Source: Microtetraspora sp. NBRC 16547
Lineage (GTDB): Bacteria > Actinomycetota > Actinomycetes > Streptosporangiales > Streptosporangiaceae
Length of the DNA stretch: 64,000 nucleotides
Assembly: GCF_030268965.1 (NCBI RefSeq)
Contig: NZ_BSSE01000009.1
Coordinates: forward strand, 124,001 to 188,000
Direction of reading: 5' to 3'
Below the pieces are notes generated by a model, which was not told the origin of the DNA, searched no databases, and saw only the letters and a list, made by a program, of their open reading frames with translations. A program made the translations under genes and the position numbers. This document shows, piece after piece, positions 8,256-64,000 of this stretch (position 1 is the first letter of the stretch; the number at the start of each line of letters is the position of its first letter).

Positions 8256-8846
8256 TCACGGCCAGGCGCGGAGCGCGATCTCGGCGACTTGATCAAGTTC
8301 GGCGCGAGTGACACCGTCGCGTGCGGCCTGGGCGAGCCCGGTGAGAGCGGACATGGTGTAGCGGCCGAGAGCGCGCGGGTCGATGTCGGCGGGGAGGCGG
8401 CCGGCGGTGATGTCGGCGCGGATCTTGGCCGCGAACGCGTCGACCTTGCTGTCGCGCATCCGCCTGAGGTGCTCGATGATCTCAGTGCTGGTGGTGCCGG
8501 CGTCCCCGCTGACGATGAGGCACCCGGTCGGGAGGTCGCGGCGGGTATAGCGTTCCGGCGCCTCGGCGAACACGCGAGCCGCGGCGCCCTTGGCGGTGGG
8601 TTCGTCGGCGAGGGCACGGTCGATGAATCCGCCGTACTTCTCGTCGTAGACCCGCAGCGCCTCCGTGAACAGTTGCTGCTTGTCGCCGAAGGCGCTGTAG
8701 AGGCTGGGGGCGCCGATCCCGAGCTCCTCGGTGAGGTCCCGCACCGAGGTGGCCTCATAGCCGCGTCGCCAGAACAGCCGGATGGCCTTGTCCAGTGCCG
8801 CGTCCCGGTCGAACGAGCGGGGACGTCCCCGTGCCGCTGTCACCAT
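8256..8846 (-). CDS. TetR-family transcriptional regulator
   Basis: Repressor of 196 residues. The N-terminal helix-turn-helix reads GYEATSVRDLTEELGIGAPS followed by LYSAFGDKQQLF, canonical for TetR. The remaining helical domain would bind a ligand; its GCLIVSG segment is typical of the TetR_C_6-like branch. It is divergent from the SDR-MFS pair at 8925-10681, and the 78-base spacer contains two repeated AT-rich half-sites. It therefore most likely represses itself and the efflux/oxidoreductase operon. The inducer is unknown. Confidence 0.92.
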   Translation of the reverse strand: MVTAARGRPRSFDRDAALDKAIRLFWRRGYEATSVRDLTEELGIGAPSLYSAFGDKQQLFTEALRVYDEKYGGFIDRALADEPTAKGAAARVFAEAPERYTRRDLPTGCLIVSGDAGTTSTEIIEHLRRMRDSKVDAFAAKIRADITAGRLPADIDPRALGRYTMSALTGLAQAARDGVTRAELDQVAEIALRAWP

Positions 8847-54608: not shown

Positions 54609-56089
<1,481 letters not shown>

Positions 56090-56129: not shown

Positions 56130-56145
56130 ATACCCCCGGGGGTAT
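56130..56145. promoter_or_regulatory. CstR-type operator 2 (upstream of rhodanese-DUF2892)
   Basis: ATACCCCCGGGGGTAT, a perfect 16-base palindrome and the best copy of the set, 27 bases before the rhodanese gene start. Its G/C tract flanked by AT resembles operators of CsoR-family proteins. Confidence 0.82.
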
Positions 56146-56172: not shown

Positions 56173-56766
56173 ATGGCTACCACTCCTCTCTCTTCGGATG
56201 TCGATGTCACGACGGCGCGTGCCATGATCGCGTCGAACCCGGATGTGCTTCTCGTCGATGTGCGTACGCCGGGGGAGTTCGACTCGGCGCACATCGACGG
56301 CGCGATCAACCTGCCCCTCGATCAGATCGGTTCTCGGTTGCGGCGGATCGTCGCGGACGCCGGGGGGACGATGGTGCTGATCTGCCAGTCGGGAAACCGG
56401 GCCGGCCAGGCGCGGGAGAAGCTCTGTGGGGCCGGGCTGGCCGATGCCGTCGTGCTCAACGGCGGGATGAACGCATGGATCGCCGCCGGCGCCCCCGTGG
56501 TGCGCGGCAAGCAGAAGTGGAGCCTGGAGCGCCAGGTCCGGCTGGTCGCGGGCGGCATCGTGCTCACGTCGATCGTGGCCGACCTGTGGCTGCCGGGGGC
56601 GCGGTTCGTGGGGGCCTTCGTGGGTGGGGGTCTGGTGTTCGCGTCACTGACCGACACCTGCGCCATGGGCATGATGCTCGCCCGGCTGCCCTACAACCGG
56701 GGCCGGGATGTGAACGTGGACGAGGCGATGGCGTGCATTCGCCGGCCCGCGCGTTCCAGGGCCTGA
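56173..56766 (+). CDS. Rhodanese fused to DUF2892 membrane domain
   Basis: A 197-residue protein. A rhodanese domain (about residues 10-110, LLVDVRTPGEFDSAHIDGAI) with active-site loop ICQSGNRAGQA carries sulfane sulfur on its Cys. Two C-terminal helices (LVAGGIVLTSIVADLW, FVGAFVGGGLVFASLTDTCA) form the DUF2892 anchor, as in E. coli YgaP, placing the sulfurtransferase at the inner face of the membrane. Start ATG 56173 after AAAGGA. Under CstR-type operator 2. It probably relays persulfide to thioredoxin or sulfite. Confidence 0.92.
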   Translation: MATTPLSSDVDVTTARAMIASNPDVLLVDVRTPGEFDSAHIDGAINLPLDQIGSRLRRIVADAGGTMVLICQSGNRAGQAREKLCGAGLADAVVLNGGMNAWIAAGAPVVRGKQKWSLERQVRLVAGGIVLTSIVADLWLPGARFVGAFVGGGLVFASLTDTCAMGMMLARLPYNRGRDVNVDEAMACIRRPARSRA

Positions 56767-56810: not shown

Positions 56811-56830
56811 ATATACCCCCCCGGGTATAT
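56811..56830. promoter_or_regulatory. CstR-type operator 3 (upstream of TauE/SafE)
   Basis: ATATACCCCCCCGGGTATAT, with perfect 8-base arms ATATACCC and GGGTATAT around CCCC, 14 bases before the exporter start. The centre is two bases longer than in the other copies if arms are aligned at ATACCC. Confidence 0.8.
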
Positions 56831-56844
56831 AGGAAAGGAGTGTC

Positions 56845-57735
56845 ATGATCGTCTTGACCTTGGCCGCCGCCGTGGTGGTCGGGCTGACGCTCGGCCTGTT
56901 CGGCGGCGGCGGGTCGATCCTGACCGTGCCGCTGCTGGTCTATTTCGCGGGTGTCCCGGCCAAGTCGGCGATCGCGATGTCCCTGTTCGTCGTGGCGGTG
57001 ACCAGCGCGGTCAGTGCTGTCGGGCATGCCCGGGCGGGGCGCATCCGCTGGAAGACCGGTCTGATCTTCGGCTTGGCGGGCATGGTCGGCGCCTACGGTG
57101 GCGGGTTGATCGGGCCGCGGTTGCCCGAGGCTTTGCTGCTGGCCGCGTTCGCGTTGATGATGGTGGCCACCGCGACCGCCATGATCCGCGGCCGCAAGTC
57201 GCCGGAGCGGCGTCCGGCACACAGTGAGTTGCCGGTCCTGCACGTGGCGGTCGAGGGCGTCGTCGTGGGTTTGGTCACCGGGCTGGTCGGAGCGGGCGGC
57301 GGATTCCTGGTGGTGCCGGCGCTGGTGCTGCTGGGTGGCATGCCGATGAGTGTCGCGGTGGGCACGTCGCTGGTCGTCATCGCGATGAAGTCGCTCGCCG
57401 GGCTCGCCGGCTACATGCAGACGGTCCAGGTCGACTGGGGGATCGCGCTTCCGGTGACTGTGGCCGCGGTCGTCGGGGGGGTGATCGGTGGCCGGCTCGC
57501 GGGGCGGGTTCAGGCGGACCGGTTGCGTCAGGCTTTCGGCTGGTTCGTTCTGGTGATGGGTGGGTTCGTGCTGGTTCAGCAGGCGCCGCCGGCGTTGTTC
57601 CACACGGTGTGGGGCGTCGCCGTGCTGGTCGCGATCGGCGTGGTCGTCGTGGCCCTCGTGGCGTACCTACTTCTACGCAAGGGGCGTCGGCGAGGCGTGC
57701 GAGCCCGCGGACTGCCGGACCTGACCAACGGGTGA
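56845..57735 (+). CDS. TauE/SafE-family sulfite/sulfonate exporter
   Basis: A 296-residue membrane protein of two repeated halves: MIVLTLAAAVVVGLTLGLFGGGGSIL-type first half and GVVVGLVTGLVGAGGGFLVV in the second, the duplicated GxxGGGG(G)xxxxP motifs of TauE/SafE carriers. About eight helices and a basic C terminus. Start ATG 56845 after AAAGGAGTG. In CstR regulons the homologue (TauE) exports sulfite or thiosulfate formed from persulfide oxidation. The thioredoxin gene follows after 34 bases, so both share operator 3. Confidence 0.92.
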   Translation: MIVLTLAAAVVVGLTLGLFGGGGSILTVPLLVYFAGVPAKSAIAMSLFVVAVTSAVSAVGHARAGRIRWKTGLIFGLAGMVGAYGGGLIGPRLPEALLLAAFALMMVATATAMIRGRKSPERRPAHSELPVLHVAVEGVVVGLVTGLVGAGGGFLVVPALVLLGGMPMSVAVGTSLVVIAMKSLAGLAGYMQTVQVDWGIALPVTVAAVVGGVIGGRLAGRVQADRLRQAFGWFVLVMGGFVLVQQAPPALFHTVWGVAVLVAIGVVVVALVAYLLLRKGRRRGVRARGLPDLTNG

Positions 57736-57769: not shown

Positions 57770-58135
57770 ATGGTCACAGAACTGACCAAGGGCAACTGGA
57801 ACGCGACGGTCGACTCGGACGGCATCGTGTTCGTGGACTTCTGGGCCGCGTGGTGTGGCCCGTGCCGTCGGTTCGCCCCGATCTTCGAGGCGGTCGCCGC
57901 CCGGAATCCCGACATCGTGTTCGGCAAGGTCGACACGGAGGCGGAGCGGGAGCTGGCGGGCGCGTTCCGTATCACCTCGATCCCGACCCTGGTGGCGATC
58001 CGTGACGGCATCGTGCTCTTCGCCCAGCCGGGAGCCCTGTCCGAAGCGGCGCTCGACGACCTCGTCGCCAAAGTCAGGGCGGCCGACATGGCGGAGATCC
58101 GCCGTCATGTGACCGGACGGCCCGCCGTGCGCTGA
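57770..58135 (+). CDS. trx: Thioredoxin
   Basis: A 121-residue thioredoxin with the canonical WCGPC active site in VFVDFWAAWCGPCRRFAPIF and the cis-Pro in RITSIPTLVAIRDG. Cytoplasmic; start ATG 57770 after AGAGAGGA. In the cluster it is probably the reductant that releases sulfide from protein and low-molecular persulfides or regenerates the rhodanese Cys. It has no own operator and is read from the TauE/SafE promoter. A hairpin terminator follows. Confidence 0.95.
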   Translation: MVTELTKGNWNATVDSDGIVFVDFWAAWCGPCRRFAPIFEAVAARNPDIVFGKVDTEAERELAGAFRITSIPTLVAIRDGIVLFAQPGALSEAALDDLVAKVRAADMAEIRRHVTGRPAVR

Positions 58136-58186: not shown

Positions 58187-58202
58187 ATACCCCCAGGGGT
58201 AT
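58187..58202. promoter_or_regulatory. CstR-type operator 4 (upstream of persulfide dioxygenase)
   Basis: ATACCCCCAGGGGTAT, differing from operator 2 at one central base, 35 bases before the persulfide dioxygenase start. It completes the four-copy set spanning 55.8-58.2 kb. Confidence 0.82.
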
Positions 58203-58237
58203 TTTCTGAAATCTCGTTGAACCACAGGAGGATGGAC

Positions 58238-59623
58238 ATGATCTTCACGCAGTACTACCTGGACTGCCTGTCGCAGGCCTCGTACCTGATCGGGGACGAG
58301 ACGAGCGGTCGTGCCGTGATCGTGGACCCCAGGCGTGACGTGTCGGAATACATCGCGGACGCCGAGGCGCGCGGGCTGAAGATCGAGGAGGTGATCAACA
58401 CGCACTTCCACGCCGACTTCATCGCGGGCCACCTCGAGATGGCCGCGCGCACCGGCGCCTGGATCGGTTACGGGCATCGCGCCGAGGCCGAGTACCCGAT
58501 CCGGAAGCTCACCGAGGGCGAGCGGATCGAGCTGGGCGAGGTCGTGCTGGAGATCCTCGAGACGCCCGGCCACACGCCGGAGTCGATCAGCGTCCTGGTG
58601 TACGAGCACGCCTCGGACGCCGTGCCGTACGGCGTGCTGACGGGTGACGCGCTGTTCATCGGCGATGTGGGACGGCCGGACCTGCTCGCCTCGCTCGGCA
58701 TGACGGCCGACCAGCTCGGCCGGATGCTGTACGACAGCGTCCAGCGCAAGCTGATGGCCCTTCCGGACGAGGTCCGGGTGTTCCCCGCGCATGGTGCGGG
58801 CTCGGCCTGCGGCAAGAACCTCTCCACCGAACGGCAGTCGACGATCGGCCACCAGCGGCTGACCAACTACGCGTGCGCGCCCATGAGCGAGGAGGAGTTC
58901 CTGTCCATCGTCACCGAGGGGCAGCCTCCCGCGCCCGGCTATTTCGTGTTCGACGCGGTGCTCAACCGCAAGAACCACGAGTTGTTCGACGTCGACGCGC
59001 ACGCCCGGCCCCTGTCGGCGGAGGAGTTCCTGGCCAGGCGGGCCGCGGGCGCGGTCGTCGTCGACGCCAGGGACGCGCAGGAGTTCGCGCTCGGCCATCT
59101 GCGCGGCTCGCTCAACATCCCCGCGGACGGCCGCTTCGCGGAGTGGGCCGGCACGGTCGTCAAGCCCGGAAGTGAGATCATCGTCATCACCCCGCAGGGT
59201 CGGGAGGACGAGATCGTCACCCGTCTCGCCAGGATCGGCCTCGACACGGTCACCGGATATCTGGTCGAGCCTGAGACCGCCTTCCTCGCCGTTCCCGGTG
59301 AGATCGCCCAGGCGAGTCGCGTCACCGTCGATGAGCTGCGCGAGGCGTTCGAAGGGGCGGAGGCCCCGGCGGTCATTGATGTGCGCAACGCGGGGGAGGT
59401 CGCGAACGGCGCCATCGAGACCGCGGTGAACATCCCGCTCGCCGAGCTCCCCGCACGGCTCTCCGAGATCCCGGCCGACCGTCCTGTCGTGGTCCACTGC
59501 AAGGGCGGCGCGCGCTCGGCCATCGCGGCCAGCCTGCTCAGGCACCAGGGGCGGGACCGGGTGTCCGACCTGCTCGGCGGTTACGATGCCTGGCAGCGCG
59601 CCGTCACGCCCGCCGAGGCATAG
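58238..59623 (+). CDS. Persulfide dioxygenase with two rhodanese domains (CstB-like)
   Basis: A 461-residue three-domain enzyme. Residues 1-240 are an ETHE1-type metallo-beta-lactamase fold: THFHADFIAGH, ETPGHTPESI, TGDALFIGDVGRPD and FPAHGAGSACG hold the iron site. Residues about 265-350 form a rhodanese domain without a catalytic Cys (VITPQGRED at the loop). Residues about 370-455 form an active rhodanese (VVHCKGGARSA). This is the layout of staphylococcal CstB, which oxidises persulfide to sulfite and combines it to thiosulfate. Start ATG 58238 with GGAGG six bases away. Own operator (4). Confidence 0.93.
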   Translation: MIFTQYYLDCLSQASYLIGDETSGRAVIVDPRRDVSEYIADAEARGLKIEEVINTHFHADFIAGHLEMAARTGAWIGYGHRAEAEYPIRKLTEGERIELGEVVLEILETPGHTPESISVLVYEHASDAVPYGVLTGDALFIGDVGRPDLLASLGMTADQLGRMLYDSVQRKLMALPDEVRVFPAHGAGSACGKNLSTERQSTIGHQRLTNYACAPMSEEEFLSIVTEGQPPAPGYFVFDAVLNRKNHELFDVDAHARPLSAEEFLARRAAGAVVVDARDAQEFALGHLRGSLNIPADGRFAEWAGTVVKPGSEIIVITPQGREDEIVTRLARIGLDTVTGYLVEPETAFLAVPGEIAQASRVTVDELREAFEGAEAPAVIDVRNAGEVANGAIETAVNIPLAELPARLSEIPADRPVVVHCKGGARSAIAASLLRHQGRDRVSDLLGGYDAWQRAVTPAEA

Positions 59624-59635
59624 CTCGCAAGACAC

Positions 59636-59664
59636 GGATACCCGCCCGCTCGGGGCGGGTATCC
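59636..59664 (+). terminator. Stem-loop terminator after the sulfur cluster
   Basis: GGATACCCGCCC and GGGCGGGTATCC, a perfect 12-bp stem with a five-base loop, 12 bases after the persulfide dioxygenase stop. Confidence 0.8.
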
Positions 59665-59739: not shown

Positions 59740-61149
59740 TCACTTGACGATCTCCAGGACCGCCATCATGCCCGCGTCCTCGTGATTGAGAATGTGGCAG
59801 TGCAGGACGGTCTTCCCGGTGTAGTTCAGGAAGTGGATCCGGATGACGATCCGTCCCCTGGGGAGAATGCTCGCGGTGTCCTGCCAGCCATGGCCGTGAT
59901 GCGGCTGGCCGTTGATGCTCATCAGCTGAAAATCGTTGGTGTGGACGTGGAAGGAGTGTTCCTCGTCGCTGTCATTGCGGACGGTCCACTCCTCGACCGT
60001 GTTCAGCTTGGACCGGATGTCCACCCGGTTCATGTCGAACTGCTTGCCGTTGATGTAGAACTCGGTCCCCGCTTTGTTCTCGGAGAACACGATGGTGCGC
60101 CGCGCGGCGACGGCGGCGTGGCTCAGGTCCTCTGTCGGCGCGAAGACGGTCGTGGGCAGCGCTGGCGGGTGTACCGACTCTCCTTCGGAGACCAGGGTGG
60201 CCAGGGTCGCCTGCGGGAACTTGTTGCCGGCGGGCCCGGTGCTGTACGGGAGCGTCTGCAACTGGGTGCGGCCGGGCGGGCCGCCTCGTACGAGCACGTC
60301 GAACCTGGCACCGGCCGCGAGGAGGAGCGAGTCAGCGGCCCAGATCCGGTCGACGGGGTTGGCGTCGTGGGCGATCACCTGGAACGGCTGGCCCTGCAGG
60401 CGGACCCGGTAGTAGATGTTGGCGCTGACATTGGCCAGCCGCCAGAGCTGGATCTCGCCCGGCCGGATGCGGATGGTCGGGTTCAGCTGGCCGTTGACCG
60501 TGCGGTTGGTCGGTGCGCTGATGTGCAGATCCTCGGTCTTGATCGCGTCGCCCTGGACCTGGAAGTCCTTGAAGGCGATGACGTGCTCTTCGATGTGACG
60601 CAAGCCCGGCGGCAGATACTGCTTCAACCCGTCGACGACGATGATGCCCGACATTCCCCCGGCGACCTGCGGCGCCGAGATCGGATGCGCGTGTGAGTGG
60701 TACCAGTAGGTGCCGGGTTTGAGGTTGCCCGGGAATCGGTAGGCGTAGTGGAACGTCTGGCCGGGATCGATGTGGATGAAGACGTTGTCGGAGTGGCCGC
60801 TCGGCGACACGTGTAGCCCGTGCACGTGCAGATTGGTGTAGGGCCCCAGCCGGTTCTCCATCGCCAGCTCCAGTCGGTCTCCCGGCCGGATCCGCAGCGT
60901 GGGCGGCATGTAGTGGCCGTTGTAGGTCAGGGCCGACAACGTGCGCCCGGCCACCTCCACCCGCCGCCGCTCAACGACAAGCCGCGCCCGCAGAATCCCG
61001 TTGTGGCTCACCAGTTGCGGCGGGTCACGCAACGGAACCCCTTCTGACGCCGATGGCGGTGAAGGGCCGCCGACGTGGCCGCTCGCCGCGATGGTGACGG
61101 CGAGAACCACGGCTGCGGCGAGGACGTTCAGGTTCCGTCGAACTCGCAT
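59740..61149 (-). CDS. Secreted multicopper oxidase
   Basis: A 469-residue three-domain cupredoxin oxidase with an N-terminal signal peptide (MRVRRNLNVLAAAVVLAVTI). All four copper-binding blocks are present: TNLHVHGLHVSPSG, GTYWYHSHAHP, EHSFHVHTNDFQ and HCHILNHEDAGMM. It acts outside the membrane and oxidises phenolics, metals or copper(I). ATG 61149 follows GGAGGGGTG. It is convergent with the persulfide gene and divergent from the dehydrogenase at 61465. Whether it is linked to the sulfur cluster or to copper resistance is unclear. Confidence 0.93.
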   Translation of the reverse strand: MRVRRNLNVLAAAVVLAVTIAASGHVGGPSPPSASEGVPLRDPPQLVSHNGILRARLVVERRRVEVAGRTLSALTYNGHYMPPTLRIRPGDRLELAMENRLGPYTNLHVHGLHVSPSGHSDNVFIHIDPGQTFHYAYRFPGNLKPGTYWYHSHAHPISAPQVAGGMSGIIVVDGLKQYLPPGLRHIEEHVIAFKDFQVQGDAIKTEDLHISAPTNRTVNGQLNPTIRIRPGEIQLWRLANVSANIYYRVRLQGQPFQVIAHDANPVDRIWAADSLLLAAGARFDVLVRGGPPGRTQLQTLPYSTGPAGNKFPQATLATLVSEGESVHPPALPTTVFAPTEDLSHAAVAARRTIVFSENKAGTEFYINGKQFDMNRVDIRSKLNTVEEWTVRNDSDEEHSFHVHTNDFQLMSINGQPHHGHGWQDTASILPRGRIVIRIHFLNYTGKTVLHCHILNHEDAGMMAVLEIVK

Positions 61150-61464
61150 CACACCCCTCCGATGTGAATGCCGTTCGTCAAGCTCCCCGATCCAGATTCA
61201 CCTGACCCGGCCATCGTACGCGGCGCTCTTCCAGGGCTTTCCATCTGCGCCACCCGAAGTCCGTTCAGCGGCAGTTGAACGGCATTTCCTCGCCCAAAAA
61301 GGCGTCGTGGCACCGGAGCACTCGTAGGCGGTGAGCGAGTGGGTATGGCGGTGAGTGACGACCAAGGAGTCGTGACTACGGGGCGTAGGCCGGGGATCAG
61401 TGTGCGGCTGGGCCGCCGGGTGAAGCGATGGGGTTCGGATGACGAAAAGCAGCGGACGGCCGGT
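61150..61464. other. Divergent intergenic region with one inverted repeat
   Basis: About 315 bases. Perfect 7-base arms CCGTTCA (61261-61267) and TGAACGG (61276-61282) around eight bases are a candidate operator for either flanking gene. The open frame that extends the dehydrogenase upstream is not conserved. Confidence 0.45.
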
Positions 61465-62637
61465 ATGAAGGCCGTCGTCTTCGCCGGCACCCGCTCGGTC
61501 GCGGTCGAGGACGTCCCCGACGCGGTGCTGGAGGAGCCCGACGACGTCGTCGTCCGGATCAGCTCGAGCGCGATCTGCGGGACCGATCTGCACATGTACG
61601 ACGGGCGCACGGGAGCCACCCAGGGGCTGGTCCTGGGGCATGAGCCTCTCGGGGTCGTCGAGCAGGTCGGTTCCGCGGTCGAAATGGTCAAGCCGGGGGA
61701 CCGGGTGGTGATTCCGACCCACGTGTATTGCGGAGTGTGCGTCAACTGCGCGCGGGGACTGTCGGCGGCCTGCCTGCGGGTGCGCCCCGGCGGCTTCGGC
61801 GCGGCGTACGGTTACGCGGGTATGGGGCCCTATCGCGGCGCGCAGGCCGAGCTGCTGCGGGTGCCGTTCGCCGACGCCAACTGCGTCCCAGTGCCCGGGG
61901 AACCGGGCGACGATCGTGAAGACGATCTGGTGTTGCTGGCTGATGCGTTCGTGACCGGTTGGCACGCGACCGTGTTGGGGGAGGTGACCGCGGGCGCGAC
62001 GGTCGCGGTGTTCGGCGCGGGGACCATCGGCCTGCTCGCGGCCTACAGTTCCTTGCTGAAGGGGGCCGCCGAGGTCTACGTCGTCGACGCGGTACCCGAA
62101 CGGCTGGACAAGGCCGGCGAAATCGGTGCCGTTCCCGTCGATTATCGGCAGGGGGATCCGGTCGACCAGATCCGCGAGCTACGCCGGGCCGGTGGCCTGG
62201 CGCCCGGTGAGGCGGCGATGAGCGGGGTCCAGGTGGGCATCGACGCGGTGGGATTCCAGGCTCACGACCGCCTGACCCCCGGAGCGGAGAACCCGACGCA
62301 GGTCGTCAGCGATCTCGCCCGGCTGATCAACCCGACCGGGCATCTGGGCATCATCGGTGTCTACGCCGAGAAGGACCTCCATCCGGCCCCGAGCGGGCAC
62401 GCCGACGGCCGCCTGACGGTGCCGTGGGCGAGCTTCTTCTCCAAGGGGGTTTCGGTGAGGTTCGGTCGCACGCACGACCGTCGCTACACGGTGCTGCTGC
62501 GTGATCTCGTGCTGTCCGGACGAGCCCGTCCCAGTGTGGTGGTCACCCATCATGGCCGGCTCGATGACGCGCCTGGGTTGTACCGGGCCTTCGACCAGCG
62601 CGCCGGCGGAGTCATCAAGGCCATCCTGCGGCCGTGA
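61465..62637 (+). CDS. Zinc-dependent alcohol/formaldehyde dehydrogenase-like oxidoreductase
   Basis: A 390-residue medium-chain dehydrogenase of the FdhA-like (glutathione-independent formaldehyde dehydrogenase) branch. MKAVVFAGTRSVAVEDVPDA start; catalytic zinc region SAICGTDLHMYDGRTG and LGHEPLGVVEQVG; Cys cluster CGVCVNCARGLSAAC; Rossmann GAGTIGLLAAYSS. It ends GGVIKAILRP. Start at ATG 61465 because the upstream extension is not family-like. Substrate may be an aldehyde; its place between a multicopper oxidase and sulfite oxidase gives no firm pathway. Confidence 0.9.
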   Translation: MKAVVFAGTRSVAVEDVPDAVLEEPDDVVVRISSSAICGTDLHMYDGRTGATQGLVLGHEPLGVVEQVGSAVEMVKPGDRVVIPTHVYCGVCVNCARGLSAACLRVRPGGFGAAYGYAGMGPYRGAQAELLRVPFADANCVPVPGEPGDDREDDLVLLADAFVTGWHATVLGEVTAGATVAVFGAGTIGLLAAYSSLLKGAAEVYVVDAVPERLDKAGEIGAVPVDYRQGDPVDQIRELRRAGGLAPGEAAMSGVQVGIDAVGFQAHDRLTPGAENPTQVVSDLARLINPTGHLGIIGVYAEKDLHPAPSGHADGRLTVPWASFFSKGVSVRFGRTHDRRYTVLLRDLVLSGRARPSVVVTHHGRLDDAPGLYRAFDQRAGGVIKAILRP

Positions 62638-62713
62638 CCGCGCACCGGGGGTGCGAACGCGCTGGTGGAGCCGGGGATCCCGACGCCTACCAGGTGCGAT
62701 GTCGCGACCGGGG

Positions 62714-63805
62714 TCAGCGGCGGCAGATGAGGTGGAGCCGCCCCCAGGAGGTGTTGGCGTAGCCCTTGGGATTCCATAGCGTCGCCGGTGATTCGGGCTG
62801 TGTGGTGCCCGCGCAGTCCCAGGCGCGGGCGACGATCTCCACCTCGCCCTCGGACAGGACGACGGTGGTGCGCCAGTGCTGCCAGGCCCAGGGACCTGCC
62901 GGTGCGTCCAATTTCGCCTGAGTCCAGGTATGTCCGGCGTCCAGGGAGACGTCCACTCGCGCGACGCTGCGGCCGTCGCCCGCGAGCGCGTAGCCGGTGA
63001 TCTCGGTCGGTCCGGGAGGCACCCGAGAGCCGTGCTCGGGGCGCAGGATGTCGCAGGTGAGGGCGACCGGCCCGAGAGAGATGCCGGCCCCCGGACCGCA
63101 CTGGGACGGGTCGGCGTCGGGAGGCAGCATGCGGTACGCGACGGCCTGGAAGTAGCCGTCTGAGGGGTCGGCCTTGGCGGTGATGCGCTCGAGCCATTTC
63201 ACGCTGCGGGCACCGATCCAGCCCGGCACGATCACGCGCAGCGGGGCGCCGTGGACGGCGGGCAGGGGATGGCCGTTCATCGCCCATGCCAGCAGAACCT
63301 CGCCGGCGGTGGCCTTGGCCACAGGGATGGAGCCGACGTAGGGCTGGGGCGGGTCCGCTTCCTGCGCCACGTCCGGCGCAGAGAAGGAGACGTGCGCGGC
63401 CTCGGGGCGCAGGCCCGCCTCGGCAAGCACGTCCGCGAGGCCCACTCCGATCCAGGAAGCCGTGGAGATGGCACCGGACCTCCAGGGATCCTCGCCCGGA
63501 ATGTCACGAATCTCGATCAGCTCGGCACGGCGGTTGCCCGCGCATTGCAGCGTCGCGATCACCTCACGCTCCGGGAAGCGGGAGCGCAACTCCTCCAGCG
63601 ACAGGCGCAACGGCCGCTCGACCAGCCCGTCCACCTCCAGTCGCCAGGTGGCCGTGTCTGTCAGGGGGATGGGACCGTGGTTGCGGCTGTAGAAAGCGTC
63701 CAGCGGCGTGGTCAGCCGCTCCGCCAGGGCGTATGTGGGCGGCTCTGCGTTGAACGGCTCCTCCTCGTGAACGAGCATGTCATCCCTTTTGTCCCACTTC
63801 GTCAT
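62714..63805 (-). CDS. Molybdopterin-dependent sulfite oxidase-family enzyme
   Basis: A 363-residue protein of the SUOX/YedY superfamily. Moco-binding domain: FYSRNHGPIPLTDTATWRLE, with the Mo-ligating Cys in VIATLQCAGNRRAEL; then HGAPLRVIVPGWIGARSVKW LERI-like; C-terminal dimerisation domain ends WNPKGYANTSWGRLHLI. No Tat signal is seen, so it may be cytoplasmic or exported with a partner. Oxidation of sulfite to sulfate would complete the pathway of the persulfide dioxygenase cluster 3 kb upstream; the link is inference from family and distance. Start ATG 63805. Confidence 0.92.
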   Translation of the reverse strand: MTKWDKRDDMLVHEEEPFNAEPPTYALAERLTTPLDAFYSRNHGPIPLTDTATWRLEVDGLVERPLRLSLEELRSRFPEREVIATLQCAGNRRAELIEIRDIPGEDPWRSGAISTASWIGVGLADVLAEAGLRPEAAHVSFSAPDVAQEADPPQPYVGSIPVAKATAGEVLLAWAMNGHPLPAVHGAPLRVIVPGWIGARSVKWLERITAKADPSDGYFQAVAYRMLPPDADPSQCGPGAGISLGPVALTCDILRPEHGSRVPPGPTEITGYALAGDGRSVARVDVSLDAGHTWTQAKLDAPAGPWAWQHWRTTVVLSEGEVEIVARAWDCAGTTQPESPATLWNPKGYANTSWGRLHLICRR

Positions 63806-63914
63806 GCTTTCCGGGTACCCCGGAGAGAGGGCCGTGATGCGTGACCGGCGCTCGCGCGAAGCCAGTGTGAGAAGCCGCGAGAGCCGGCGGCCGGGTGCCG
63901 ACCGGCACTTGCGA

Positions 63915-63950
63915 GCAGGTGGAGGCCCCCTCTGCCGGGCCTCCACCTGC
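63915..63950. terminator. Strong stem-loop terminator near the right edge
   Basis: GCAGGTGGAGGCCC and GGGCCTCCACCTGC form a perfect 14-bp stem around an eight-base loop. It lies just downstream of a probable gene end entering from the right edge on the minus strand. Confidence 0.75.
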
Positions 63951-63962
63951 TTCCCCGGGCAA

Positions 63963-64000
63963 TCACTCGGGGGTGTCTCGACCGTTCTCCTCAACATGGC
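63963..64000 (-). CDS. Possible 3' end of a gene entering from the right
   Basis: A minus-strand frame from the right edge reads HVEENGRDTPE and stops at TGA 63963-63965, with the strong hairpin terminator 13 bases further on. The position suggests the C terminus of a gene upstream of the sulfite oxidase. Only twelve residues are visible, so identity cannot be judged. Confidence 0.35.
   Translation of the reverse strand, partial: HVEENGRDTPE

What the first reader, a model, noticed from the sequence alone, without database searches (positions are those of the whole stretch)
62714..63805. Sulfite oxidase close to the persulfide cluster
Persulfide dioxygenase makes sulfite, TauE/SafE may export it, and a Moco sulfite oxidase 3 kb away could oxidise it to sulfate. 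No CstR-type operator was found before the oxidase, so control would be separate.
Basis: inference. Interest (0 to 1): 0.35.

Follow-up and report, generated by a model that had tools for sequence, protein, structure and literature searches.

The report
Stand-alone sulfite oxidase near persulfide genes
The gene is an ordinary bacterial sulfite oxidase that happens to lie beside a persulfide-detoxifying gene cluster in this soil bacterium; the closeness is not kept in its nearest relatives, although in some distant relatives the same kind of enzyme does sit inside such a cluster.

Summary
Window 62714-63805 (-) encodes a 363-aa haem-free Moco sulfite oxidase (SOX) of plant/animal type, 3.1 kb from the persulfide dioxygenase (PDO). 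No CstR-type operator precedes it; the genome's four perfect operators all lie in the persulfide cluster. The reading 'last step of this cluster' is partly supported. Two other genes and strong hairpins separate the units. In three same-genus genomes SOX and PDO lie on different contigs. Of 80 named SOX loci (up to 10 kb flanks), 2 hold a PDO-like gene and 0 an operator. So the adjacency here is probably coincidental. Both exceptions are informative: in Actinomadura livida PDO and SOX are head to head; in Mycobacterium-type loci SOX ends a (GntR-)rhodanese-TauE-SOX unit divergent from PDO, with an SQR-like gene nearby, and one such locus has a CstR operator. This SOX clade can thus belong to persulfide-to-sulfate oxidation, and the proposed chemistry is plausible without co-regulation here. 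Best reading: a separately transcribed, probably cytosolic sulfite oxidase clearing sulfite from any source, PDO included. New member of a known kind.

The parts
62714..63805 (-). Sulfite oxidase (SOX), 363 aa, Mo domain plus dimerisation domain, no haem domain, no evident N-terminal export extension
63915..63950 (-). 14-bp hairpin upstream of SOX, between it and a GNAT-like ORF; no T tail
   Evidence: z -4.25
61456..62637 (+). Zn-dependent alcohol dehydrogenase (formaldehyde-dehydrogenase-like, below the NCBIfam cut-off), convergent with SOX
59740..61152 (-). Multicopper oxidase, between PDO and SOX, no CstR-type operator
59636..59664 (+). 12-bp hairpin just after PDO, end of the persulfide cluster
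   Evidence: z -4.53
58217..59623 (+). Persulfide dioxygenase with rhodanese domains (longest ORF; start more likely ATG 58238)
57770..58135 (+). Thioredoxin
56845..57735 (+). TauE/SafE sulfite exporter family
56173..56766 (+). Rhodanese with a YgaP-like membrane segment (the latter just below Pfam's cut-off)
55820..56089 (+). CstR-like CsoR-family repressor: C35 and C64 kept, position of the CsoR copper-ligand His is Gly
   Evidence: searched from 55823, one codon after the ATG
55795..55810 (.). CstR-type operator ATACCCCCTCGGGTAT
56130..56145 (.). CstR-type operator ATACCCCCGGGGGTAT
56813..56828 (.). CstR-type operator ATACCCCCCCGGGTAT
58187..58202 (.). CstR-type operator ATACCCCCAGGGGTAT before PDO

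Best explanation
The gene is a stand-alone, probably cytosolic, haem-free molybdenum sulfite oxidase of the plant/animal type. It oxidises cytosolic sulfite to sulfate at the Moco centre (Cys88 ligand) and passes electrons to O2 or to an unidentified carrier. It is transcribed on its own, outside the CstR regulon. It clears sulfite from any source, including whatever PDO makes that TauE does not export. Its place 3 kb from the persulfide cluster is probably coincidental in this strain. Shown: domain family, active-site residues, lack of an operator, neighbourhood not conserved. Inferred: substrate, location, electron acceptor, separate transcription, physiological source of sulfite.
For: Two Pfam domains over nearly the full length. 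Best solved matches are the sulfite oxidases 2a9d/1sox and 1ogp, ahead of 2blf (SorA) and 4pw3. Positions equivalent to chicken R138, H140, C185, R190, W204 and Y322 are kept in 14 of 14 homologues (residue roles recalled). 4 of 14 homologous ORFs open at the conserved start, leaving no room for an export signal. MoaC for Moco synthesis is in the genome. Four perfect operators in the genome, all in the cluster. 0 of 13 relative SOX stretches but 6 of 7 relative PDO stretches carry the operator at <=1 mismatch. Of 13 other SOX-bearing genomes, 8 lack this PDO at E<=1e-70 and 5 (G001, G002, G003, G151, G208) have it on a contig other than that of SOX. No neighbour family was found in three or more of 14 SOX loci outside one genus. 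In 80 named loci: PDO-like in 2, CstR-like in 0, operator in 0.
Against: In L169, L181, L182 and L184 (Mycobacterium type) and L098 (Actinomadura livida) a homologue is directly clustered with PDO, and with TauE in all but L098. Two hits in 80 loci is more than my rough chance expectation of about 0.1. So some functional link in the clade looks real, and the window could be a loose case of it. Two of eight counted positions differ from chicken sulfite oxidase: R450 is Lys and K200 is Pro. No enzyme or expression data exist here.
Confidence: 0.7

Rival explanations
1. One reading: SOX is the dedicated last step of the persulfide pathway here (persulfide to sulfite by PDO, sulfite to sulfate by SOX, TauE as overflow), kept close for that reason but controlled separately.
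For: SOX is predicted cytosolic, where PDO makes sulfite (inference). Direct PDO-SOX or TauE-SOX clustering in L098, L169, L181, L182 and L184. In L184 the stretch has a CstR homologue (65% identical over 78 aa), a window-type PDO (56%) and a perfect operator in the intergenic region that separates the rhodanese-PDO pair from rhodanese-TauE-SOX.
Against: No operator at SOX; MCO (-) and ADH (+) lie between; hairpins after PDO and before SOX; PDO on another contig in 3 of 3 same-genus genomes; 8 of 13 other SOX-bearing genomes lack this PDO at E<=1e-70.
Confidence: 0.25
2. SOX-family enzyme with another substrate (for example another oxyanion or sulfoxide), since position R450 is Lys here and that position is a specificity position (recalled).
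For: K347 in place of Arg and P103 in place of chicken K200. NCBIfam SorA, SorT and SoxC equivalog models all score below their cut-offs.
Against: K and R alternate among 14 homologues (8 K, 6 R), so positive charge is kept; six other counted positions are invariant; clustering with PDO and TauE in some relatives points to sulfite.
Confidence: 0.07

Closest known systems
Plant/animal sulfite oxidase catalytic core (1sox/2a9d chicken, 1ogp plant; organisms recalled)
   Same: Mo domain plus dimerisation domain aligned over residues 10-359 of 363; six of eight counted active-site positions identical to chicken
   Different: Lacks the part of 1sox before residue 107 (cytochrome b5 domain, recalled); R450 position is Lys and K200 position is Pro here
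Bacterial SorA / SorT sulfite dehydrogenases
   Same: Same domain family, E 1e-66 and 1.1e-53 to the NCBIfam models
   Different: Far below curated cut-offs (225.3 vs 600 and 182.5 vs 570 bits); immediate neighbours read include no evident cytochrome (judged by eye beyond the genes scanned); no export signal apparent
Streptomyces coelicolor CsoR-PDO-rhodanese-TauE sulfane sulfur circuit (PMC7533328, passages seen)
   Same: Same four gene kinds and operator ATACC-N6-GGTAT before the genes, as in the window's cluster
   Different: Sulfite oxidase is not mentioned as part of the circuit in the passages seen; the window's cluster adds a thioredoxin

Membership tests
Sulfite oxidase family (plant/animal-type catalytic core) | Oxidored_molyb and Mo-co_dimer domains | tested here: met
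   both over cut-off
Sulfite oxidase family (plant/animal-type catalytic core) | Moco Cys ligand and substrate-pocket residues (chicken R138, C185, R190, W204, Y322) | tested here: met
   residue roles recalled, chicken numbers counted along the alignment
Sulfite oxidase family (plant/animal-type catalytic core) | Third pocket arginine (chicken R450) | tested here: inconclusive
   Lys here; K in 8 and R in 6 of 14 homologues
Sulfite oxidase family (plant/animal-type catalytic core) | Oxidises sulfite | not testable with these tools
   needs an enzyme assay
SorA/SorT bacterial sulfite dehydrogenase | Score over the NCBIfam equivalog cut-off | tested here: not met
CstR regulon | ATACCC-N4-GGGTAT operator before the gene | tested here: not met
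   SOX: none at <=2 mismatches; the looser published form at <=1 mismatch also gives no site at SOX
CstR (persulfide sensor of the CsoR family), for the neighbouring repressor | Two sensing Cys without the copper-ligand His | tested here: met
   alignment to 4adz CsoR, His aligned to Gly, two Cys aligned; ligand roles recalled. The NCBIfam matches of this protein (RicR, FrmR) are below cut-off, so no library names it CstR

The most novel reading that the evidence does not exclude
In part of the Actinomycetota a cytosolic, haem-free sulfite oxidase is the built-in last step of persulfide detoxification. Mycobacterium-type loci assemble SQR, PDO, rhodanese, TauE and SOX, wired by a CstR operator in one arrangement and by a candidate GntR-family operator ATGTACGTACAT, for which I saw no paper (listing only). 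The window's SOX is a related copy that does the same job without the wiring.
Probability: 0.35. Interest if true: 0.45.

Novelty: new member of a known kind. Interest (0 to 1): 0.25.

Why it matters
A review seen in passages (PMC9774590) describes the prevailing bacterial sulfite-oxidising enzymes as periplasmic and cytochrome-dependent, with a cytoplasmic route by a different enzyme, SoeABC; the published Streptomyces circuit ends with probable sulfite export. A cytosolic sulfite oxidase of this fold tied to PDO would close the pathway to sulfate inside the cell. The window itself does not show that tie, but relatives make it testable.

Tried and rejected
Copper control of the cluster was considered because a multicopper oxidase is adjacent. 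Rejected: the repressor lacks the copper-ligand His and the oxidase has no operator. Conserved SOX partner genes: clustering of ORFs around 14 loci gave groups in three or more loci only within one genus, plus weak or single pairs. Around 81 loci (only ORFs with GC3 >= 0.72 within 6 kb kept) the largest groups were in 16, 14 and 9 loci and look like a transporter, an ABC ATPase and an alcohol dehydrogenase (named by eye); smaller groups (7 loci or fewer) were not identified. No partner was accepted. The ADH beside SOX: ADH-like hits in 7 of 80 named loci, at varying places and 29-44% identity; taken as background. The L164 TauE fragment (80 aa) lies in no ORF that Pfam recognises among the two tested; not counted as clustering. 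Structure prediction was not run: a close solved homologue made it unnecessary. Substrate change by R450K: set aside because K and R alternate. The named loci cannot test this, since one of the two scan patterns itself asked for K or R there.

Chance estimate for PDO near SOX is my own arithmetic, not a call. PDO-like matches at E<=1e-25 occur in 126 of 296 genomes. The 80 loci hold about 1.46 Mb (some contigs are short, the smallest about 3 kb, so flanks are often less than 10 kb). With genomes of 5-8 Mb this gives roughly 0.1 expected against 2 seen. The three further unnamed loci with SOX next to TauE came from a search aimed at them, so they are not in that count; they are 3 of 11 TauE-bearing genomes among 248 searched. 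For 6 of those 11 only about 1.5 kb of flank was looked at.

Full report
What is there. The finding's coordinates hold one intact gene on the minus strand, 62714-63805, 363 aa. It has the molybdopterin domain and the dimerisation domain of sulfite oxidases. The closest solved sequences are sulfite oxidases 2a9d (E 2.1e-85), 1sox (E 4.8e-84) and 1ogp (E 9e-74), ahead of 2blf (SorA, E 1.4e-55), 6y0k (E 4.1e-48) and 4pw3 (E 1.2e-34) (that 1sox/2a9d are chicken, 1ogp a plant enzyme and 4pw3 SorT is recalled). NCBIfam models SorA, SorT and SoxC match but stay far below their cut-offs. The genome has six PF00174 matches; this one has the best score.

Active site. In the alignment with 1sox, residues equivalent to chicken R138, H140, C185, R190, W204 and Y322 are R41, H43, C88, R93, W108 and Y224 (I counted the chicken numbers along the alignment, and catalytic roles are recalled). 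They are the same in 14 of 14 homologues. Two counted positions differ from chicken: R450 is K347 here (K in 8, R in 6 of 14) and K200 is P103 (P in 13, A in 1). No haem domain is present. In four homologues (L044, L047, L048, L073) the reading frame opens at the conserved start, so no export signal fits there. No signal-peptide program was run. MoaC is present in the genome, and so is a sulfite/nitrite-reductase-type protein.

Surroundings. PDO ends at 59623 and is followed by a 12-bp hairpin. Then come a multicopper oxidase (-), a Zn alcohol dehydrogenase (+) and SOX (-). Upstream of SOX, at and beyond the window's edge, are by my reading of the sequence a GNAT-type acetyltransferase ORF and an amino-acid-permease-like ORF on the same strand; a 14-bp hairpin lies between the GNAT-like ORF and SOX. 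Neither hairpin is followed by a T tail. The scan of 61100-64000 found no sigma-70-like promoter and one terminator-like site, at 61455-61476 and not at SOX.

Operators. The cluster's repressor is a CsoR-family protein in which the position of the copper-ligand His is Gly, fitting a persulfide sensor. The published S. coelicolor operator is ATACC-N6-GGTAT, and there the CsoR-like protein binds the promoters of four genes: its own, PDO, rhodanese and the sulfite transporter (PMC7533328, abstract and passages). In this genome ATACCC-N4-GGGTAT has four perfect sites, all in the cluster, and one further site with one mismatch on another contig; the reversed control pattern gave one. The looser published form, at up to one mismatch, gave 35 places against 18 for the control pattern; two perfect looser sites lie on other contigs and none of the 35 is at SOX.

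Is the closeness conserved? In the call over 60 genomes, full-length SOX orthologues (59% identity or more) occur in 7, this genome included. In a class-wide sample 8 of 296 genomes have SOX at E<=1e-70 and 40 of 296 have PDO at that level; three have both, this genome included. The three same-genus genomes G001-G003 have PDO on another contig than SOX; their SOX contig lengths equal those of titled Microtetraspora niveoalba, M. fusca and M. glauca contigs, so I take the genus to be Microtetraspora. G012, G034 and G004 have no full-length match to this PDO. In G151 and G208 the two genes are on different contigs. The remaining five (G096, G106, G122, G163, G329) lack PDO at E<=1e-70; at E<=1e-25 G096 has a weak match whose place was not listed. 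Of 13 SOX stretches from these genomes, 0 carry the operator at one mismatch; of 7 PDO stretches 6 do. No neighbour family occurs in three or more of the 14 loci outside one genus, though weak pairs exist, among them the ADH (44% identical) near SOX in L075. Between this genome and M. glauca one acyl-carrier-like gene near SOX is shared; around PDO, nothing outside the persulfide cluster was found shared with the three same-genus stretches above 40% identity.

Wider test. Of 80 named SOX loci (some the same as those above; flanks up to 10 kb, less on short contigs), PDO-like genes occur in 2, TauE-like in 2, CstR-like in 0, thioredoxin of this type in 0 and operators in 0. The 7 PDO stretches used as control gave PDO in 7, rhodanese in 7, TauE in 5, CstR in 5 and thioredoxin in 2. 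M. malaysiensis (L092), not among G001-G003, also shows no PDO near SOX. The two exceptions are close arrangements. In L098 (Actinomadura livida) a PDO-like gene (38% identical to the window's) and SOX are divergent, with 135 bp between the starts. In L169 (titled Mycobacterium sp. MAG) a flavoprotein resembling sulfide:quinone reductase and a PDO-like gene (30%) run one way, and GntR-rhodanese-TauE-SOX the other, with 47 bp between TauE and SOX (the SQR label is mine, Pfam gives Pyr_redox_2).

Follow-up. G454 and G466 repeat the L169 arrangement (L181, L182; the two gave identical scores, so they count as one case). G359 (L184) has, in one stretch, a CstR homologue (65% over 78 aa), SQR-like, GntR, a window-type PDO (56%) and rhodanese, then divergently rhodanese-TauE-SOX. 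The intergenic region holds ATACCCGCGGGGGTAT at 8476 and the palindrome ATGTACGTACAT at 8528. The operator lies nearer the rhodanese-PDO side, so whether it also controls SOX is open. G546 (L185) has the same arrangement and sites, but no SOX in the 19 kb looked at, and G501 (L183) has TauE, an SQR-like match and CstR but neither PDO nor SOX in 18 kb. ATGTACGTACAT occurs exactly 7 times in 5 of these 6 stretches, beside the GntR gene or in front of rhodanese-TauE. In the 79 other named SOX loci (1.44 Mb) only one site with one mismatch was found, and in the window none at up to two mismatches. That GntR binds it is inference.

Judgement. A hand-over of sulfite from PDO to SOX is plausible and has genomic precedent in distant relatives, but it is not shown by the proximity in this window, which is not kept even within the genus. 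I therefore call SOX a stand-alone, probably cytosolic sulfite oxidase whose position here is probably coincidental.

Literature. Of nine paper searches, five bear on the combination. In their listings, with the starts of abstracts, I saw no paper presented as describing a PDO-TauE-sulfite oxidase cluster in actinobacteria; the lists were cut, and papers listed that hold both enzyme names, such as PMC5823870 and PMC9995734, were not opened. Passages were seen of PMC7533328, PMC9774590, PMC8557817 (a different, membrane-bound candidate in Rhodococcus), PMC6527743 (ECF sigma factors beside sulfite-oxidising enzyme genes in Proteobacteria) and PMC4760952 (SorT with its cytochrome SorU). No whole paper was read.

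Noticed in passing
L184:5568 and 8528, L169:7844, L181:5980, L182:5074, L185:10236 and 13196: Exact palindrome ATGTACGTACAT beside a GntR/UTRA regulator gene or before rhodanese-TauE(-SOX) in Mycobacterium-type sulfide clusters; 7 sites in 5 loci. Candidate operator of a GntR-type sulfur regulator.
   Followed up: partly
L184 and L185: Two neighbouring persulfide modules in one stretch: a window-type PDO and a second PDO about 55% identical to that of L169 (cut by the stretch's edge in L184), with CstR and GntR regulators both present.
   Followed up: partly
L081 (G003:C6:533101-535281): The persulfide cluster of G003 has an extra, more distant PDO-like gene (36% identity) and extra operator sites near it.
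   Followed up: no
L007:10204-15993 (beyond the window's right edge): Long ORF (-) of 1929 aa that looks like part of a non-ribosomal peptide synthetase followed in frame by a transporter-like stretch (seen by eye); an acyl-carrier-like gene nearby is shared with G003.
   Followed up: no
window 59636-59664: The hairpin after PDO contains GGATACCC/GGGTATCC arms like halves of the CstR-type operator, but as a 12-bp stem.
   Followed up: no
G000:C11:205923-205938: One further operator-like site with a single mismatch (CTACCCCGACGGGTAT) outside the cluster.
   Followed up: no
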